A stretch of DNA of 64,000 bases from NCBI RefSeq assembly GCF_900177345.1, contig NZ_FWZT01000002.1:186001-250000 (forward strand), in the 5' to 3' direction. Shown here piece after piece: positions 12,906 through 26,024 of the stretch; position 1 is the stretch's first letter; each line of letters begins with the position of its first letter. The DNA is from Pseudobacteriovorax antillogorgiicola. GTDB lineage: Bacteria; Bdellovibrionota_B; Oligoflexia; Oligoflexales; Oligoflexaceae. The notes beneath the pieces were generated by a model. That model was given only the letters and a program-made list of their open reading frames with translations. It was not told the origin of the DNA and ran no database searches. Both the position numbers and the translations under genes were made by a program.

Positions 12906-13658
12906 TTATGAATGCTTGGTCCACCCCTGTAGTTCATGTTCGTCTTGCTCCAAGGAAGCGAGGTCTGTGAATCCAAAATAGGACAGGTGATCCGCGGTTA
13001 CTTGAAACCTTCTTCCCTGGTGAGTCGCTGAACCGATGTTAAGGAAATACCTCTTGAGTCTATGAGCTAGATTTTGATCGGGAGCAATATAAAGTATCTC
13101 ATCCCACAGGCCCTGCTTGCGAGCAATCAGATGAGATACCAAAATTTCAGAATACCTTTTCCTGCTTTTTAGAGTCCTCTCCATCTCGATAGCGATACGC
13201 TGCCCACCCTCGGTAACCATAATTGCATCAGGCTGTTTTTTCGACTTTGTAGGCATGTCAGATATTCTCACCCAATCGCACTTTTGGTGTTTAGTAAGTA
13301 GAACTCTGGCTTTTTGTAAATCCAGGTGATGGAACATAGAGACCAGCGAAAGCTTCGAAGGCTCAAGTGCACGGACATTTTCTTGGAACTCAGAACGAGA
13401 TATACCTATTCCATGATTTGTGATCCCCCAAATATCAATGCTGCCACCATAAGGTATATCTATTTTGACTTCCTTAACAGCGCCCATTTGCTTCAGCTGA
13501 CAAAGGGTTTTGACTACTGAATATTTGGACTTTAAACCCAAGTGGTACGCAAGGATATCTGGGTGTGTCCACCTTTCACTTAGCAAGAATGAAAGTATCT
13601 GTTGCTGCTTTTCCCTTGCTCGTTGAGACCCCTTTCGGCCCGAAAGTAGGTTACTCAT
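12906..13658 (-). CDS. mobC: MobC-like relaxase (MOBC family / replication-relaxation fold)
   Basis: 250 aa, close to the about 243 aa of CloDF13 MobC. The N-terminal half is a winged helix (QQQILSFLLSERWTHPDILAYHLGLK, then SVVKTLCQLKQMGAV). The C-terminal half has a PD-(D/E)XK-like line: PDAIMVTEGG then IAIEMERTLKSRKRY, giving Asp, Glu-x-Glu and Lys. MOBC relaxases lack HUH motifs and instead resemble this nuclease fold. The gene overlaps mobB by ATGA, as expected for a MobB-MobC pair. Predicted to bind and nick the element's oriT. The alternative label is a replication-relaxation family protein; the partnership with a coupling protein favours the relaxase. Confidence 0.7.
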   Translation of the reverse strand: MSNLLSGRKGSQRAREKQQQILSFLLSERWTHPDILAYHLGLKSKYSVVKTLCQLKQMGAVKEVKIDIPYGGSIDIWGITNHGIGISRSEFQENVRALEPSKLSLVSMFHHLDLQKARVLLTKHQKCDWVRISDMPTKSKKQPDAIMVTEGGQRIAIEMERTLKSRKRYSEILVSHLIARKQGLWDEILYIAPDQNLAHRLKRYFLNIGSATHQGRRFQVTADHLSYFGFTDLASLEQDEHELQGWTKHS

Positions 13659-15409
13659 AGTAATGCCCTCCCAATGTCCAAATCCATCTCGTCATCGAGT
13701 TTGTTGTCAGGTAGCATCACCGTTAATGCCTTGTCTTTCTCTTTGTCGATTGGGATAGGACAAACATAAGCGAGCTGAGCCACTTTATTGCCGTTGAAAA
13801 GAACGGCACATCCCTTGGGAAGCGATTGAAAAATATTTGTTGAAAATAAATTTGACCCTACTTCGGAGTAGCTGGTGCTACTTGTCGGTAAGAAGTGTCC
13901 CTGAGTCGTTGCTTGAGTGTGCATGCTTCTGGCATTGACAATTGACTTGCCTGAAAGATTGGAAGCCCACTGAGCTGTAGAAAAATCGGACTGTTGATAT
14001 ACAAGCTTAATGGTCGAGTTATCAAGAATACTTCTTTCAATTGTTATTGGATCTAGATCGGTGGAATCTGACAAATCGCCGATAGTTTGAAAAGCTGCGA
14101 TGTAGCTCAGCCTTCTATCTAGCACTACCCCAAAACTACGCACAAGAGTCGGGCAAATTAGAAATTTCAACTCGTCACAAAACATTGTTACTTGCTTATG
14201 GTCATTGTCAAATTCTCTCTGTGAGATTATCTGAACCGTTCTAATGGCGTAGATCTTATGGAGAGTTTGAATGGTGGTGTTCATCGTATCGCCAGTAATA
14301 ATTATACTGTCACCTTTGCTGATGACATCCTTGATATCAATATTGCTTATGTGATGAGGTGGAAAGTAATGAGCCAATTCAGAAATACGCTCTATAAAGC
14401 CTTGAGCCTTTTTCGCTAGGTCACTATCTATCAAATTTTCAATACTTGATTCTAGATCGCGAAAACTAGGGTTTTTATCAGCCCAGTAGTTGGATAGGAT
14501 TCTAGCTACCTTCCGGCCAGCAATCCTGTAAAAATCCGATTCTCTTCCTGTGTCGGACTGTTTTAGTCCATCGACAAGTATTTCATAAATATCCTCTCCT
14601 GAACAACTTGCAAACGGATTAGGAAGCATAGTGTGCCTGATTCGAACGTGATGAAGATGAATCCCTCTGATACGTGCGGCAATTGCTAGGACTCCTGATA
14701 AAAACGAGTCGTGCTTTGGCGCCATAACTACGGTTACAACCCCTCTTAAGATCAGTTGGTGCAAAATCATGCCGCTCCATATCCCTTTCCCAACTCTAGA
14801 TGGGCCAATTACAAGGGAATGAGTCTGTGTGAATGATTGAAATGAGCACCAAATTGGCTTCATTCTCTCGTCTAATCCTAGGAAGATATTGTCCCTAGCT
14901 TTTGAAAAATCGAAATAGGCTAAAGGATTATAAGGTTTCAACCTGCTGAAAAATTTCTGATCATTGACAATATCAGGTAGACCATCTCTGTTCTTGAAAG
15001 TGTATCCATACCAATCCATAAATTTCTTTTCCCATTTAAAATGGATTACACCTACTAGAAACAAGCCTAAAAATACTCCGAAGATAGATCCGTAGAAGAC
15101 TTGATTTTGCTTCGAGTGAAGGTATTCGAGAAAGGTGATTGGATAGAAGAAGCTATTAAGATCTTCTAGATATAGTACCCAGGACATCAGCATGAATAGC
15201 GGGAAGATTATAGATAGGAATAGGCCGACTTTTCCCAAAGCTCGAATGCAGTGGACGAGGAAAAGGTGTTCGTTCGAGAGAAGAAACATGACTCTGATAA
15301 AAAAGATAATTGTAGAAATAAGAAGTGATGAAGCGAGAAAGAAAGAAATCTCATCATAAGTTATTAGCCATTGAGTGGTAGCAATCCATACTTTGTCAAA
15401 TTGGTTCAT
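13655..15409 (-). CDS. mobB: MobB-like type IV coupling protein
   Basis: 584 aa. Three or four hydrophobic segments occupy the first about 130 residues (membrane anchor). A VirD4/TraG-type ATPase follows, with Walker A IGPSRVGKGI and Walker B-like VTMFCDELKFL. The region FQTIGDLSD matches the T4CP motif before the conserved Gln/Asp. A C-terminal tail is soluble. T4CPs link the relaxase-DNA complex to a conjugation channel. Upstream of and overlapping mobC, the same order as in CloDF13. No other transfer genes are present, which fits a mobilizable rather than self-transmissible element. Confidence 0.8.
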   Translation of the reverse strand: MNQFDKVWIATTQWLITYDEISFFLASSLLISTIIFFIRVMFLLSNEHLFLVHCIRALGKVGLFLSIIFPLFMLMSWVLYLEDLNSFFYPITFLEYLHSKQNQVFYGSIFGVFLGLFLVGVIHFKWEKKFMDWYGYTFKNRDGLPDIVNDQKFFSRLKPYNPLAYFDFSKARDNIFLGLDERMKPIWCSFQSFTQTHSLVIGPSRVGKGIWSGMILHQLILRGVVTVVMAPKHDSFLSGVLAIAARIRGIHLHHVRIRHTMLPNPFASCSGEDIYEILVDGLKQSDTGRESDFYRIAGRKVARILSNYWADKNPSFRDLESSIENLIDSDLAKKAQGFIERISELAHYFPPHHISNIDIKDVISKGDSIIITGDTMNTTIQTLHKIYAIRTVQIISQREFDNDHKQVTMFCDELKFLICPTLVRSFGVVLDRRLSYIAAFQTIGDLSDSTDLDPITIERSILDNSTIKLVYQQSDFSTAQWASNLSGKSIVNARSMHTQATTQGHFLPTSSTSYSEVGSNLFSTNIFQSLPKGCAVLFNGNKVAQLAYVCPIPIDKEKDKALTVMLPDNKLDDEMDLDIGRALL

Positions 15410-16854: not shown

Positions 16855-17625
16855 ATGAAAAAGTGTTTATGGGTGTCATTTCTTTTACTAGCTTCATGTG
16901 GGCAGGACGATGTAAACTCTCACGATCTAAAAATAACCAATGGGCGAGAAGTCTCTGAAGATCTTGCTTCTACCGTAGGCTGGATAGATAGCGACGGTGT
17001 GAACTGTACAGGAACGTTTTTAACTGATAGTAAGATGTTAACTGCTGCTCATTGCATTCAATCTACAAAAATAGCCTATTTTGGCAAGTCAGGTACAGTT
17101 TTTTCGACAAGAATAGCTAAACATCCAAAGTGGCGAGACAATGGAAGTTCAACTATTCCTGTTGATATGGTGAAGTATGACTTGGCAGTTGTTACTTTCC
17201 CTAATAATACGGGACCTGCTAAGGCATTAATCGCTCAGAAGCTCAAGACTGGAGATTATGTAACAATCGCTGGGTTTGGATCAAACAAGTGGGATGGAAA
17301 TTCAAATTCCCCCAGTAGCGGAGGCGGCGTTTTTCGTGTTGGAGAGAACCGAATCACACATGTATCAGATGGAGTCATTTTTCTGAACGGCAAAAATAGC
17401 TCTCCGGATAGTAGCGGAGCGGATGCAGGAGCTGCAAAAGGTGATTCCGGAGGCCCATTATTTATACAAAGAACCCCGTTTAACAAGTATTCTGGTATTG
17501 TTGGGGTAGCATCTGGAGCTGAGCCATATCAAGGCAATCGGTTAAAGAACGCCTACGTAGATTTAAATTCATCATACTCAAGATCTTTTTTGCGGTCTCA
17601 AGGAATTGCCTTGCCATCTTTGTAG
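16855..17625 (+). CDS. Trypsin-like serine protease, lipoprotein
   Basis: 256 aa. Signal peptide with lipobox LLASC (Cys15). S1 (chymotrypsin) fold with the full triad: His66 in LTAAHC, Asp109 in KYDLAV, Ser198 in GDSGGP. The N-terminal ITNGREV fits the zymogen activation site (I-x-G-G class), so cleavage before Ile may activate it. Cys51 and Cys67 could form the usual disulfide beside the His. Cargo gene of the element, convergent with the PDZ gene. It may degrade prey or host proteins, or process co-secreted proteins; that is inference. Confidence 0.88.
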   Translation: MKKCLWVSFLLLASCGQDDVNSHDLKITNGREVSEDLASTVGWIDSDGVNCTGTFLTDSKMLTAAHCIQSTKIAYFGKSGTVFSTRIAKHPKWRDNGSSTIPVDMVKYDLAVVTFPNNTGPAKALIAQKLKTGDYVTIAGFGSNKWDGNSNSPSSGGGVFRVGENRITHVSDGVIFLNGKNSSPDSSGADAGAAKGDSGGPLFIQRTPFNKYSGIVGVASGAEPYQGNRLKNAYVDLNSSYSRSFLRSQGIALPSL

Positions 17626-20342: not shown

Positions 20343-21218
20343 CTAAGGCTGAACAGCATCTTGAATATTCTGCACCCGTTGATCGTACTCTGATAGTAAG
20401 TTTTGAAGGATAACATCGCCCATTAGGAGACCATTTGCTACAACTACATGATCCATGACCGTCTGACCCTTGGTGTCGAGGTTGTAAACTGTATTATCTT
20501 CTGATGGTAGCATATAAGTAGTAAGTGCAACCAACTTATCTAGCTGACCGTCTTGCGTAACTAGACTATCTCCAACAACAAGCTCCTTGGCCATCTTCAG
20601 TAAGTAGTTTCCATCGCTGCTGAGCACAACAGGGTGTTTTTCTGTTAACTCGATCTCCAAGCCGGATTCAGTTAGTAGAGAGAAAATTTCGTTTTCCTCA
20701 GGACCAACTGTGAAACTTCCGCGATTCAAAAAATCTGTAGCACGCAACTCCGGGGAATGCTCAGATACTGGTATGGCTAGGCGAAAAGGTTCGTCTTTTG
20801 ATGATTCGAATAGATCAAGAATGTCTATGGAGCCACGAGTGCTTAGTAGCTTTACACCTGCTGGGAAACATCCGCACATACATCTCATTTCAGCGAATTC
20901 AGAATTATCGGTAACTTGATAGAAGAATGCGTTCCTAGGGATATTGTGAGGACCCCTAATTTTTTCATCACCTCCAGCTCCGATTTCACAATTTCTCTTT
21001 TGCAAGTTGTTACAACGAATTGCTTCACTATCAGATTCACCGAGAGCATAGGCGTCTGGAAGTTTGCAAAGCCAGTCTGTTTCAGTTTTCCGTTGGCTAA
21101 ACTTTGCATCATGGTACGCAAGACCTGACTTGCAGTAGCCCCATTCATCATCTGCCAATGAACCATAACTAATCGAACTGAATAATAGTGTAGTGAGCAA
21201 AGATAGTATTGTTTTCAT
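20343..21218 (-). CDS. Exported Hedgehog-type Hint-domain protein
   Basis: 291 aa with AGGAAAATATT before the ATG. Signal peptide (about residues 1-22). A Cys-rich N-terminal module (residues 23-115) ends CMCGCFPAG. The Hint (hedgehog/intein) domain starts at Cys117, in GCFPAG as in Hedgehog GCFPG. It continues with the block-B LTEKHPVV (Thr192, His195) and closes with YNLDTKGQTVMDHVVVANGLL. The terminal His-Asn of inteins is absent, as in Hedgehog. Family chemistry is an N-S acyl shift at the Cys, releasing or modifying the N-terminal module; here this is predicted, not shown. The N-terminal module shares CxxxxKxxCxxGAGG with the 154-aa protein encoded first in the operon. Confidence 0.8.
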   Translation of the reverse strand: MKTILSLLTTLLFSSISYGSLADDEWGYCKSGLAYHDAKFSQRKTETDWLCKLPDAYALGESDSEAIRCNNLQKRNCEIGAGGDEKIRGPHNIPRNAFFYQVTDNSEFAEMRCMCGCFPAGVKLLSTRGSIDILDLFESSKDEPFRLAIPVSEHSPELRATDFLNRGSFTVGPEENEIFSLLTESGLEIELTEKHPVVLSSDGNYLLKMAKELVVGDSLVTQDGQLDKLVALTTYMLPSEDNTVYNLDTKGQTVMDHVVVANGLLMGDVILQNLLSEYDQRVQNIQDAVQP

Positions 21219-21227
21219 AATATTTTC

Positions 21228-22889
21228 CTATTTTACGGTACTAAAGACTTTTTTAATTGTTGTTGATACAGGCGATATCTCGTTGAAATCTACTTTTTTA
21301 GATAGTCGATTCTGAGAGTAGAAAGTAACAAGCATACATCGGTCTTGTGAACGGAATGCCCCAATCGCTCTCAAAGTATATTTTCCACGACGCTCAAAGT
21401 GCTCCACGAGAAATTTAAACGGAACTTCGCCTTGGTATTGTTGAGAAGAGGGGTTGTTCTCTACCTCCGCGACATCAGAGCAACTTGCTTCGCGAATTAT
21501 AGTGCTAAGATGAACAGTCTCACCTGTTTCGGATAGACTAGAGAACCCATCATAGTCTTCCAAGATTGACCCCGAATCTGCTTGCGAGGTAGAAAAGGCA
21601 GCTTTGGTCGAAGGGTGTTTTATTTGCCAGCCCTGGAATGAAACCGGATTTAGATTACCAAATGACTCCAACTTTAGATCCTTCTCATTGTAACTTCGAA
21701 TTCTTCGTAGTTCACGATCCGCTACAGCAATGCAAGTTTTGGGTGTATCGTAACAAGAAATTGAAACACCACTTAGAATTTCTGCGTTCTTGAAGGCGAG
21801 ATCTTCAATGGATTGAACTCTAGATTTCTGAGAAGAACTTAATTGACGGCTGTAATTGACGAGTAAGTCAGTTGCTCTTTGCTTATTGAGCAGCTCTTTT
21901 GTATACTTTCGTTCAATATCACGTCTCTTCTCGCGAACGAGTAGGTCGAGCTGTTGATACCCTTGATTTGGAACTAAATCGAACGCTCCTGATTCATCAT
22001 AACGCTCCGTTATATACTTGATTGGCTTGTAACGGTTGGGGTCAGATAGCTGTTGCACGACGTTTGTTTTAGCATATCTGATTGCATCATTGAATAGTTT
22101 AAAACAAGGTTTAGGGTTTTCTAACGAACACGTAACTAAGGAGTCAGGAATGATAGTTAGCAACTGAAGTGAGTCACCGCCCACCTGTCTTGCTTGAATA
22201 CTAATGTTAACAGATGACTTACGAGCTTGGTCCAACATTTCTAACTCGCCTTCCAGCTTGAATATGTCGATGCCACCCTCACCGACAGCTAAATCTAACT
22301 TACCTCCAATCTCTTCTTTATCGAATTCGTTTGCATAGTCGACTTTCATATTGATAAATAGCTTTGCGCCATACTCAATCTCTTTGACGAACTCGTTACC
22401 GCAATAGGTCTGTAGTTGAGAATTTCTATTGTCGCGAATATTTTTTCCTGTTGGCGTAAGTTCATAAGAATTCGTGCGCAAAATCTGTCTTCGTTTTATA
22501 TTTGACCAAGTAAATAGAAAACTATTAGAGACGTTCGTTGAGGAGTTTTCCATAGCATATTCAGCACCCGCCCCAGCTCGTACCGCTGGATACTCTAGAT
22601 TGACAGAAATCTTACCTCCGATCTTTTTCAGTGTCTCTTCAAATCCCAATCCAATGCTTAGATCAATCTCTGCAACCTCACCAATCTCGCTTTTTACCGA
22701 GTCACCCGTGATACAAGTAACATTCAGCATTTTGTATCTATCGGTATCAAAAGCTTGACCTAGTACAACAGAATTGACAGCTTCTTGTGGGATTTCATAG
22801 GTATCCAGCACGCTTGTTGCAGAGGGATCTCCACAATTTACCAAGAAGGATGCACTACCGAGTGCCATCAAAAGTGGTCTCAATTTCAT
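21228..22889 (-). CDS. Exported multi-domain protein: pore-former-like N-terminal part plus novel two-Cys domain
   Basis: 553 aa from the ATG at 22887-22889 (AAGGAT upstream); the upstream ATG at 22931 lies inside the gap and lacks a signal peptide context. Signal sequence ends ASFLVNCGD, a possible relaxed lipobox. Residues about 30-300 resemble the adjacent 286-aa protein: CITG, an alternating hydrophobic stretch, YCGNEFVKEIEYGAKL and QARQVGGDSLQLL. The [CY]GNxxV...GAK pattern followed by QxGGD recalls MACPF-type pore formers, but this is weak. A coiled/helical middle follows. The C-terminal about 130 residues (GWQI..., REASCSD, DRCMLVTF) are the domain duplicated in the 332-aa lipoprotein. 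Confidence 0.7.
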   Translation of the reverse strand: MKLRPLLMALGSASFLVNCGDPSATSVLDTYEIPQEAVNSVVLGQAFDTDRYKMLNVTCITGDSVKSEIGEVAEIDLSIGLGFEETLKKIGGKISVNLEYPAVRAGAGAEYAMENSSTNVSNSFLFTWSNIKRRQILRTNSYELTPTGKNIRDNRNSQLQTYCGNEFVKEIEYGAKLFINMKVDYANEFDKEEIGGKLDLAVGEGGIDIFKLEGELEMLDQARKSSVNISIQARQVGGDSLQLLTIIPDSLVTCSLENPKPCFKLFNDAIRYAKTNVVQQLSDPNRYKPIKYITERYDESGAFDLVPNQGYQQLDLLVREKRRDIERKYTKELLNKQRATDLLVNYSRQLSSSQKSRVQSIEDLAFKNAEILSGVSISCYDTPKTCIAVADRELRRIRSYNEKDLKLESFGNLNPVSFQGWQIKHPSTKAAFSTSQADSGSILEDYDGFSSLSETGETVHLSTIIREASCSDVAEVENNPSSQQYQGEVPFKFLVEHFERRGKYTLRAIGAFRSQDRCMLVTFYSQNRLSKKVDFNEISPVSTTIKKVFSTVK

Positions 22890-22943
22890 AAATTTATCCT
22901 TAAAATTAAGAAAAACTATATTCCGAACCATTCGGAAAGAAAA

Positions 22944-23804
22944 CTAGTAGTCGAAGATTGCAAGTTGCTCATAGCTATCAGTTGCTAAGACGAAACTTGC
23001 AAGATTAGATTTATCGCTTAAGCTCATTCGGTATTGTCGTGAACGGACGTACTCAAATAGCCTATTAAATGTATCAATACACGGTTCCATGTCGTTGGTT
23101 TTGCAACTTATCTGTCCAGCCGACTTCAGTCGATCTAGTTCCTTGGTGTCACCCCCTATTTGAAGTGCCGAAACTTCTAAGAGACCTTCCTCAGCGAACT
23201 CTTGGAATTCTTCGATTGTAGTCTTGCTCTTTTTCACCAATCCGCCGAACGCAGATGCCTTTACTTTCGTCTTGAACCAACGATATTTTTCGGAAGAATT
23301 AAACCTTAGATTCAGGGAAAGTAAAGTTTTAGCTCCAATTTCCTGGGAGTGAACAACTCTGTTGCCGCATATCTTTGATTTTTCATCGGGATCTAAGAGT
23401 CTTGCTTCATTACCAATCTCGTTTAGACGGGGGTTAATTAACGACTCTACATGGCTTTGATAGTCAATTAGCCATATAGCAGAAGCACTCTTGTTAGTTT
23501 CGGTATTGCGAATGAGAAACTCCCGAGAAGCCTTTCCACTTATAATCCCAAGATCAATGCTTCCTCTCAATCGGCCATTGTATCGTTCAATGAAGTCACT
23601 AAGACTTTCGCCATATCCAACTTTAAGGTTCGTTTTCTCCAAATCTATTGATATGACTTTTCCTGTTATGCACTCCGAAACTATGCGTTGCTCTTGAACG
23701 TTGTAGCCATGACCAAGCCATCTTTGGTTCTCGTTTGGGCTAAGAATATCGGTACCGAATGCGCTTGTAGAAAGCATCATGGCGTAGAATAAGTTTTTAG
23801 TCAT
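22944..23804 (-). CDS. Exported protein related to the N-terminal part of the next gene (pore-former-like)
   Basis: 286 aa. Signal peptide MTKNLFYAMMLSTSAFG. Shares the order of motifs with the 553-aa neighbour: CITG, L(K/S)(V/I)G(Y/L)G, a Gly-rich amphipathic stretch, KICGNRVVHSQEIGAKTLLSLNL, ALQIGGDTKEL, and a last segment CKTNDMEPCIDTFNRLFEYVR against CSLENPKPCFKLFNDAIRYAK. It lacks the extra C-terminal domain. Likely a paired, tandem-duplicated protein; MACPF-like identity is only a hypothesis. Second gene of the operon. Confidence 0.7.
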   Translation of the reverse strand: MTKNLFYAMMLSTSAFGTDILSPNENQRWLGHGYNVQEQRIVSECITGKVISIDLEKTNLKVGYGESLSDFIERYNGRLRGSIDLGIISGKASREFLIRNTETNKSASAIWLIDYQSHVESLINPRLNEIGNEARLLDPDEKSKICGNRVVHSQEIGAKTLLSLNLRFNSSEKYRWFKTKVKASAFGGLVKKSKTTIEEFQEFAEEGLLEVSALQIGGDTKELDRLKSAGQISCKTNDMEPCIDTFNRLFEYVRSRQYRMSLSDKSNLASFVLATDSYEQLAIFDY

Positions 23805-23831: not shown

Positions 23832-24296
23832 TTAGTATTCACACGCTCCAGCCTCGGGATTACTAGCGTTAAATGTGCATTGAAGTCGTAGTTTAAAGCG
23901 CCCTATAGATCTGTCACCCTCCTTCTCACAGGCTTCAAGTTCATACTCCAACTCCCAATCAGATTGTGTATAGATATCGCGCTTACAGTCTCTTTCAACA
24001 TTTCGAGCTAATGACCTGGGATATATCAGTTCCTCTCCGTCAATGCGGAACCATTCGCCCAAAACAATATTGCCACTACCAGTGCCTCCAGCTCCTCTTC
24101 GACAATGTTTTTCTTTTTGTCGGCATGCTTCTAGACTATGGATAAAATCATTTTTTGTTGGTGTTCTGCATGTGTGGTTATATGGGTAGGCTGACGAGGC
24201 TTTATCACAGTACACTCGCGTTACCAGCGCACTTGCATCTACTGATAGCAGGAGTGAAAAAACTGATGCTCCAATTCTATTAAACTTCTTATTCAT
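23832..24296 (-). CDS. Exported Cys-rich protein, 154 aa
   Basis: TTGGAG precedes the ATG. Signal peptide with SVFSLLLSVDASA. The mature part has an even set of cysteines, consistent with disulfides. Its CRQKEKHCRRGAGGTGSGN segment matches the CNNLQKRNCEIGAGGDEK segment of the Hint protein N-terminal module, followed in both by a (W/Y)F-aromatic strand. So this is the free form of the module carried by the Hint protein. First gene of the operon, 42 bp downstream of the sigma-54 promoter. Confidence 0.75.
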   Translation of the reverse strand: MNKKFNRIGASVFSLLLSVDASALVTRVYCDKASSAYPYNHTCRTPTKNDFIHSLEACRQKEKHCRRGAGGTGSGNIVLGEWFRIDGEELIYPRSLARNVERDCKRDIYTQSDWELEYELEACEKEGDRSIGRFKLRLQCTFNASNPEAGACEY

Positions 24297-24971: not shown

Positions 24972-26024
24972 ATGAAAATGCTTTTTGCTAAGCTGATTGA
25001 AAAAATTGAATACAAAGCATTAAAAGCAATCTCGCTACGGAGGCCAATGGCTATCCAGCTCGACATCACTAACGCTTGCAATCTTTCATGCACTCATTGC
25101 TATCATCCCCACCATTCCAATAAGGGAGCTATTGGAATTGAAAGCTGGAAAGGTGTTTTGGATGAAGTTGAGAGATTTCTATTAAAATACTCATTCGATC
25201 CTGAGTTTATTATCTGTGGAGGTGAGCCTCTATTAAGCCCTTTGTTCAAGCCTATAGTCACTAGAATTGGTGAGCAGTTTAAGGGTGCTAGAATCGTAGT
25301 GCTGACTAATGGGACAATCTATCGGAGTTCCCTTTTAGCGTTTTTATACAAATATCCTATAAGCGTTCAAATCTCGTTGGATGGACCGAATCAAGAAACT
25401 CATGACCAAGTCAGAGGGGATGGAAGCTTTGAAAAGACTGTAGAGGGGATTAGGCAGTTCAATGATTTTTGCGACGTTTCTATCCTTTCGATACTATCTA
25501 GTAGGACTAGACCTTGGATCAAACAGTTCTTTGAAAACGCAAGGTCCCTAAACGTTCACGCTCAGAACTTCACTAGGCTGATTGAGCAAGGTAGCGGGAA
25601 GGAAATGACCTCTCAAAACCTTGATAGAGTCTTATCGCCACTTGAATTGAAAAATGCCTACAAAGAGATCATTCTTCAATCTTTTCTGACAGAAGTACCT
25701 ACTAACACTAGTCAGCCGCTTTATGCGCTACTTGACAAAAGCTTTGGGTCCAGTGGGCTATTTGGTTTTGATGCATTGATAATCGACTATAGAGGGCAGT
25801 TGAAACTAACAAGTAGGGCTGATTTTGTGCTGGGGAATATTCTCGAACATGATTTAGAGACGCTATATATCGATAACTTGACCTTGAATAGACTAAGAAA
25901 TGGGGAGGTAGAGGTCTGTGGAGACTGTGAACTATTCAATCTCTGCGGTGGAGATAGAAATGCAGCCTATGCTGAGTATGGAAGTTTTCTTGCGAAAGAT
26001 CCAGGATGTTGGAAGTTACAATAG
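24972..26024 (+). CDS. Radical SAM/SPASM-domain protein
   Basis: 350 aa; GGCGGGG precedes the ATG pair at 24972/24978. Radical SAM core with C36-x3-C40-x2-C43 (CNLSCTHCYHP), the ICGGEPLL glycine motif, VVLTNGT and VQISLDGP. The C-terminal SPASM-type cluster region has CGDCELFNLCGGDRN and a final PGCW. Such enzymes modify peptides (RiPPs), make PqqA-like products or mature enzymes. Its operon partners are an exported 102-aa protein and an oligopeptide-binding protein, favouring a peptide substrate. First gene of a seven- or eight-gene operon ending with a sigma-54 activator. Confidence 0.85.
   Translation: MKMLFAKLIEKIEYKALKAISLRRPMAIQLDITNACNLSCTHCYHPHHSNKGAIGIESWKGVLDEVERFLLKYSFDPEFIICGGEPLLSPLFKPIVTRIGEQFKGARIVVLTNGTIYRSSLLAFLYKYPISVQISLDGPNQETHDQVRGDGSFEKTVEGIRQFNDFCDVSILSILSSRTRPWIKQFFENARSLNVHAQNFTRLIEQGSGKEMTSQNLDRVLSPLELKNAYKEIILQSFLTEVPTNTSQPLYALLDKSFGSSGLFGFDALIIDYRGQLKLTSRADFVLGNILEHDLETLYIDNLTLNRLRNGEVEVCGDCELFNLCGGDRNAAYAEYGSFLAKDPGCWKLQ

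What the first reader, a model, noticed from the sequence alone, without database searches (positions are those of the whole stretch)
20343..21218. Bacterial Hedgehog-type Hint protein with a Cys-rich N-terminal module
GCFPAG at the start of the Hint domain parallels the Hedgehog cleavage site GCFPG; block-B TxxH (Thr192, His195) is present; the terminal His-Asn of inteins is missing, as in Hedgehog. Self-cleavage at Gly116-Cys117 would free the N-terminal module, perhaps with a transferred nucleophile, or attach it to something. Few bacterial cases are characterised.
Basis: partly seen in the sequence, partly recalled or inferred. Interest (0 to 1): 0.75.

Follow-up and report, generated by a model that had tools for sequence, protein, structure and literature searches.

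The report
Self-cleaving protein beside pore-forming genes
A bacterium of the Oligoflexus group makes exported proteins that end in a Hedgehog/intein-type self-cutting domain, and their genes sit next to genes for perforin-like pore-forming proteins far more often than chance, which suggests a self-processing secreted weapon or attachment system that appears not to have been described.

Summary
ORF 20343-21218 (minus strand, 291 aa) has a signal-peptide-like start, a Cys-rich N-module and a C-terminal Hint domain starting at Cys117. AlphaFold2 plus Foldseek confirm the Hint fold (inteins, a bacterial intein-like domain and Drosophila Hedgehog all match). Across 63 divergent Oligoflexia relatives the nucleophile Cys, the Gly/Ser before it and the block-B T/SxxH are invariant. 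The intein His-Asn is replaced by Gly-Asp or Gly-Ser, followed by an invariant Gln. Hedgehog-like behaviour (N-terminal cleavage or transfer, no splicing) is therefore well supported. Membership of the Hedgehog family is not: there is no sterol-recognition region, and Pfam's Hedgehog model fits no better than others. The new part is context. The gene lies in a tight six-gene run that includes two MACPF/perforin-like genes. Short Hint genes lie within 5 kb of MACPF-like genes in 17 of 45 cases (0.45 expected); the long, pilin-like class in 1 of 46. The linkage recurs in Pseudoalteromonas. Hint-less copies of the N-module sit beside Hint genes in four other loci. Verdict: a new variant of the bacterial intein-like/Hint kind, probably an autoprocessed partner of a pore-forming system. 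Cleavage itself is not shown.

The parts
20343..21218 (-). Hint-terminated secreted protein, 291 aa: signal peptide about 1-20, Cys-rich N-module about 21-116, Hint domain 117-268, helical tail 269-289
20868..20876 (-). predicted cleavage/acyl-shift site: Cys115-Gly116-Cys117 codons (nucleophile Cys117, 61/61 conserved in relatives)
20634..20645 (-). block-B Thr192-Glu-Lys-His195 codons
20415..20420 (-). Gly267-Asp268 codons, replacing the intein His-Asn; Gln272 follows
21228..22931 (-). MACPF/perforin-like lipoprotein, 567 aa, ends 9 bases before the Hint gene starts
   Evidence: AlphaFold2 model and Foldseek: all 48 PDB matches at E<=1e-3 are MACPF/CDC-type proteins; relative in L057 matches Pfam MACPF at E=0.009, below cut-off
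22944..23804 (-). second, shorter MACPF-like protein, 286 aa
19511..20317 (-). membrane-anchored partner, 268 aa: one N-terminal hydrophobic segment plus soluble domain; conserved beside or near the Hint gene in L057, L058, L059, L091
18484..19482 (-). lipoprotein-like, 332 aa, last gene of the tight co-directional run
23832..24296 (-). small secreted Cys-rich protein, 154 aa, first gene of the run; similarity to the Hint protein's N-module not significant

Best explanation
This is an exported protein whose C-terminal Hint domain performs an N-to-S acyl shift at Gly116-Cys117. The resulting thioester is resolved by water or by another nucleophile, which frees the Cys-rich N-module (about residues 21-116), possibly with something attached to its new C-terminus. 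It cannot splice by the standard route, because the residues for C-terminal cleavage are missing and there is no C-extein domain to join. The released N-module works together with the MACPF-like pore-forming lipoproteins and the membrane-anchored partner encoded in the same operon. Shown by computation: the fold, the conserved N-terminal catalytic residues, the altered C-terminus, the gene run and the conserved linkage. Inferred: that cleavage happens, what resolves the thioester, and the joint action with the pore.
For: Hint fold and profile homology. Catalytic Cys, Gly/Ser before it, T/SxxH and Asn246 invariant in about 60 sequences that are mostly 20-30% identical to the window protein, while the His-Asn position is always Gly followed by Asp or Ser, with one exception. 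The Hint domain is always C-terminal in the proteins read. In four loci a Hint-less copy of the N-module lies next to the Hint gene, with alignment scores of 92-192 against 29-30 for shuffles; the one in L092 ends one residue before the Cys1 position (...CRSN against ...CRSS-C). Six co-directional genes with gaps of 9-28 bases. MACPF linkage 17/45 against 0.45 expected, or 13/41 after removing the loci that seeded the MACPF model; the long Hint class gives 1/46. Independent linkage in Pseudoalteromonas, MACPF E=1e-52 to 1e-38.
Against: No cleavage has been observed. Only 17 of 45 short-class loci have a detectable MACPF neighbour, and Hint relatives in Azospirillum, Tistrella and Embleya have none within 7 kb. 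The model of the N-module is low confidence, so its role is unknown. Neighbouring genes need not act together.
Confidence: 0.55

Rival explanations
1. The Hint domain transfers the N-module onto a nucleophile at a membrane or on a partner protein (Hedgehog-like ligation), so that the module becomes a covalent tether or receptor for the pore-forming protein.
For: Hint always at the extreme C-terminus, C-cleavage residues lost, invariant N-site; a membrane-anchored partner close by in many loci; Hedgehog structure matches with TM-score 0.78 by target.
Against: No sterol-recognition-like domain follows the Hint; only a helix of about 20 residues. No conserved acceptor identified. The membrane-partner families cl4, cl5 and cl9 are not demonstrably homologous, and the Gly-Ser subfamily lacks one.
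Confidence: 0.2
2. Processing is simple timed release. The Cys113/Cys115/Cys117 cluster keeps the domain locked by a disulfide in the oxidising envelope until reduction (for example on contact with a target) triggers cleavage.
For: Cys at -4 in 39/60 and at -2 in 35/61 relatives; all the Cys-rich short members in the alignment have the -4 Cys. A redox-trapped intein structure exists in the PDB (3nzm, listed).
Against: The members L022, L026 and L029 and several pilin-like members have no such Cys yet keep the catalytic site, so gating is not general. Disulfides were not tested.
Confidence: 0.15
3. The Hint domain is a catalytically silent structural remnant and the operon works without cleavage.
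For: The C-terminal catalytic pair is gone.
Against: Perfect conservation of Cys1, Gly/Ser-1 and T/SxxH over very divergent sequences argues for retained chemistry.
Confidence: 0.07
4. This is the C-type bacterial intein-like domain already described in Bdellovibrio; nothing new about the domain itself beyond taxonomy.
For: C-type BILs are reported from Bdellovibrio (cited in PMC9185962; original paper not held), and Oligoflexia were long classed near Bdellovibrio (own knowledge).
Against: The C-type is described there by a separate predator-specific domain, PPS-1; neither that domain nor the Bdellovibrio sequences could be compared here.
Confidence: 0.25

Closest known systems
Bacterial intein-like (BIL) domains, types A, B and C
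   Same: Hint fold, N-terminal cleavage site, found in non-conserved bacterial proteins; B-type lacks the terminal His-Asn motif (PMC7765530); PDB 2lwy is a top structural match
   Different: Invariant Gly-Asp/Ser...Gln tail, always at the protein C-terminus, linked to MACPF genes; Pfam Hint_2 (which I recall as the model nearest to B-type) matches only 3 of 24 members, best E 0.0014; relation to C-type untested
Hedgehog/Hog Hint (PF01079; PDB 1at0)
   Same: GCF at the cleavage site, TxxH, no His-Asn, Hint in the C-terminal half of a secreted protein, structural match
   Different: No sterol-recognition region; Pfam model matches 9 of 24 members, best E 9e-5, no better than Intein_splicing
Inteins (PF14890, TIGR01445)
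   Same: Best profile matches; block A and B residues present
   Different: No C-terminal Asn with penultimate His, no +1 nucleophile, no C-extein domain: cannot splice by the standard route
MACPF/CDC pore-forming proteins (for the neighbours 21228-22931 and 22944-23804)
   Same: Fold by AlphaFold2/Foldseek; CGxEFV...GG signature in the family alignment
   Different: Lipoprotein-like proteins beside a Hint gene; no paper in the held library was found that links MACPF and Hint in bacteria

Membership tests
Hint superfamily | Hint fold | tested here: met
Hint superfamily | Block A Cys/Ser/Thr at position 1 and block B TxxH | tested here: met
Intein | C-terminal His-Asn and +1 Cys/Ser/Thr, inserted in a conserved host protein | tested here: not met
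   Gly-Asp-Val; Hint is C-terminal
Hedgehog/Hog | Sterol-recognition region after the Hint domain | tested here: not met
   only a 20-residue helix follows
Hedgehog/Hog | Match to Pfam Hint PF01079 above the gathering score | tested here: not met
   window protein has no PF01079 match at E<=1; best of 24 members E 9e-5
Hedgehog/Hog | Cholesterol or other nucleophile transfer to the N-module | not testable with these tools
   needs biochemistry
BIL type A | His-Asn at the C-terminus | tested here: not met
BIL type B | No His-Asn but other Hint motifs present | tested here: met
   shared with other types, not sufficient by itself
BIL type B | Sequence similarity to known B-type members | tested here: inconclusive
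   Hint_2 matches 3 of 24 members weakly
BIL type C (Bdellovibrio) | PPS-1 domain and C-type sequence motifs | not tested
   original paper not held; no Bdellovibrio genome was reached
MACPF/CDC (neighbour 21228-22931) | MACPF fold | tested here: met
   pTM 0.48, so the overall arrangement is uncertain
MACPF/CDC (neighbour 21228-22931) | Pfam MACPF above gathering score | tested here: not met
   best relative 16.6 bits against 21.5; window protein itself no hit

The most novel reading that the evidence does not exclude
A Hint domain that self-processes to couple a secreted Cys-rich module covalently to a target or to the cell's own membrane, where it serves as receptor, anchor or activator for a co-encoded perforin-like pore: a bacterial attack or attachment system using Hedgehog-type chemistry, shared by Oligoflexia and Pseudoalteromonas.
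Probability: 0.2. Interest if true: 0.88.

Novelty: new variant of a known kind. Interest (0 to 1): 0.62.

Why it matters
Native functions of bacterial Hint/BIL domains are, to my knowledge, largely unknown. A conserved gene neighbourhood that ties them to MACPF pore-forming proteins, in two phyla, gives a testable context. Stand-alone copies of the N-module suggest which part does the work. If the chemistry is ligation, it would be a bacterial counterpart of Hedgehog lipid transfer.

Tried and rejected
Single-sequence Pfam, NCBIfam and PDB searches gave only sub-threshold hits; the alignment profile was needed. The idea that the 154-aa neighbour (23832-24296) is a Hint-less N-module was dropped: score 34 against 31 +/- 5 for shuffles. 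Joining all membrane-partner families (cl4, cl5, cl9) into one was dropped: hhalign E 0.003-0.05. Phages: none; IMG/VR: none with the window protein, one weak Hint hit with a Pseudoalteromonas query. Promoter and terminator scans were no better than shuffles. L090 65-574 looks like a truncated Hint gene near a contig end and is not counted as a stand-alone module.

Full report
What was checked. The protein begins with a signal-peptide-like hydrophobic stretch, continues with a Cys-rich module and ends in a Hint domain from Cys117. Searches with one sequence give only sub-threshold Hint/intein hits.

Relatives. The same genome (7.28 Mb, 68 contigs) holds 14 family members, and 39 of 58 genomes of the class hold at least one. 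Named relatives are Oligoflexales, Oligoflexaceae and Oligoflexia MAGs; one, L058, corresponds to G002, a genome of the window's own family. So the window is from the Oligoflexus group. Whether the organism is a predator is not known.

Fold. AlphaFold2 on an 18-sequence alignment gives block-mean pLDDT 88-98 for residues 121-270; the N-module is poorly predicted. Foldseek against the PDB returns inteins (E to 3e-10), a bacterial intein-like domain (2lwy, TM-score by target 0.77) and Drosophila Hedgehog (1at0, 0.78). A 24-sequence profile matches solved inteins at 1e-8.

Active site. In 63 unique relatives, position 117 is Cys in 61/61, 116 is Gly/Ser in 61/61, 192 is Thr/Ser and 195 is His in 62/62, and 246 is Asn in 62/62. 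The intein His-Asn position is Gly (61/61) followed by Asp or Ser (60/61), with an invariant Gln at 272. The residue after Asp is variable and no domain follows, only a helix at 269-289. By established intein and Hedgehog chemistry this predicts an N-to-S acyl shift with N-terminal cleavage and no standard splicing. Many members have Cys at -2 or -4, which could form a disulfide with Cys117; this is a hypothesis only.

Two architectural classes. Short proteins (about 255-376 aa) have a signal peptide and a small, often Cys-rich N-module. Long proteins (most over 480 aa) often begin with a pilin-like hydrophobic segment, judged by eye, and some sit beside a pseudopilin gene (N_methyl, E=0.0013, below cut-off). 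In L088, L092, L099 and L115 a stand-alone N-module gene lacks the Hint domain and lies next to the Hint gene. The one in L092 ends one residue before the position of Cys1, like the predicted cleavage product.

Gene run. In the window six genes run in the same direction with gaps of 9-28 bases: 154 aa, 286 aa, 567 aa, the Hint protein, 268 aa and 332 aa. The 567-aa lipoprotein, modelled from a 15-sequence alignment, matches only MACPF/CDC-type proteins among the 48 PDB hits at E<=1e-3 (perforin, C9, TgPLP1, pleurotolysin B, cholesterol-dependent cytolysins, astrotactin). The overall model is modest (pLDDT 70, pTM 0.48), and Pfam MACPF scores in relatives are below the gathering score. The family signature CGxEFV...GG is in the alignment.

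Linkage. Short-class Hint genes lie within 5 kb of a MACPF-like gene in 17 of 45 cases, 0.45 expected from gene numbers and genome sizes; the long class, an internal control, gives 1 of 46. Three of the loci (four Hint genes) seeded the MACPF model, so the fair count without them is 13 of 41. Trypsin-like lipoproteins, some with leucine-rich repeats, occur in several of the same clusters, and a membrane-anchored partner lies close by in many.

Another phylum. The Pseudoalteromonas secondary replicons L135 and L136 carry a 647-660-aa protein with the same C-terminal Hint type (E about 1e-25), followed by several MACPF-like genes matching the Oligoflexia profile at 1e-52 to 1e-38 and preceded by a metalloprotease-like PKD protein. 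Hint relatives in Azospirillum, Tistrella and Embleya lack a MACPF neighbour within 7 kb. No paper in the held library was found that links MACPF and Hint in bacteria.

Known context. BIL domains of types A and B are reviewed in PMC7765530. A C-type is cited in PMC9185962, and its source (Dori-Bachash 2009, on Bdellovibrio) also in PMC2797640; the original is not held, so whether this family is C-type is open. Hedgehog membership fails on the missing sterol-recognition region, but working like Hedgehog (N-terminal acyl shift, C-terminal Hint, no splicing) remains the best reading.

Verdict. Observation confirmed; interpretation partly supported. It is a new variant of a known kind. The link between a self-processing domain and a pore-forming gene cluster is the part worth a bench test.

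Noticed in passing
L105, L107, L109-L113, L116: Long Hint proteins, many with a pilin-like hydrophobic start, sit beside a conserved single-TM partner (cl4, C..GD.DLI motif); some also have a pseudopilin gene nearby. A possible Hint-tipped pilus.
   Followed up: partly
L086, L087, L089; window 16855-17625: Trypsin-like lipoproteins, some fused to leucine-rich repeats, cluster with MACPF-like and Hint genes; LRRs also occur on MACPF-like proteins (L119, L122).
   Followed up: partly
L101, L102, L115, L118, L123: In another branch the Hint gene is followed by a single-TM protein (cl5) and a lipoprotein of about 460 aa (cl3) instead of MACPF; cl3 has no recognised family.
   Followed up: partly
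L138, L139: Azospirillum Hint protein with the same GD...Q tail; in L138 it lies beside a tryptophan halogenase and a LodA/GoxA oxidase; meaning of that pairing unknown.
   Followed up: no
window 24972-26024: Radical SAM protein divergent from the gene run; a radical SAM gene (22.6% identity) also lies near the Hint cluster in L058.
   Followed up: no
window 13655-15409: By eye, a VirD4/TraD-like coupling-protein sequence (GPSRVGKG), suggesting a conjugation-type gene nearby.
   Followed up: no
L141 6893-8788: Acidisarcina plasmid protein annotated only as leucine-rich repeat matches the MACPF-like profile at E=2.6e-49, without a Hint neighbour.
   Followed up: no
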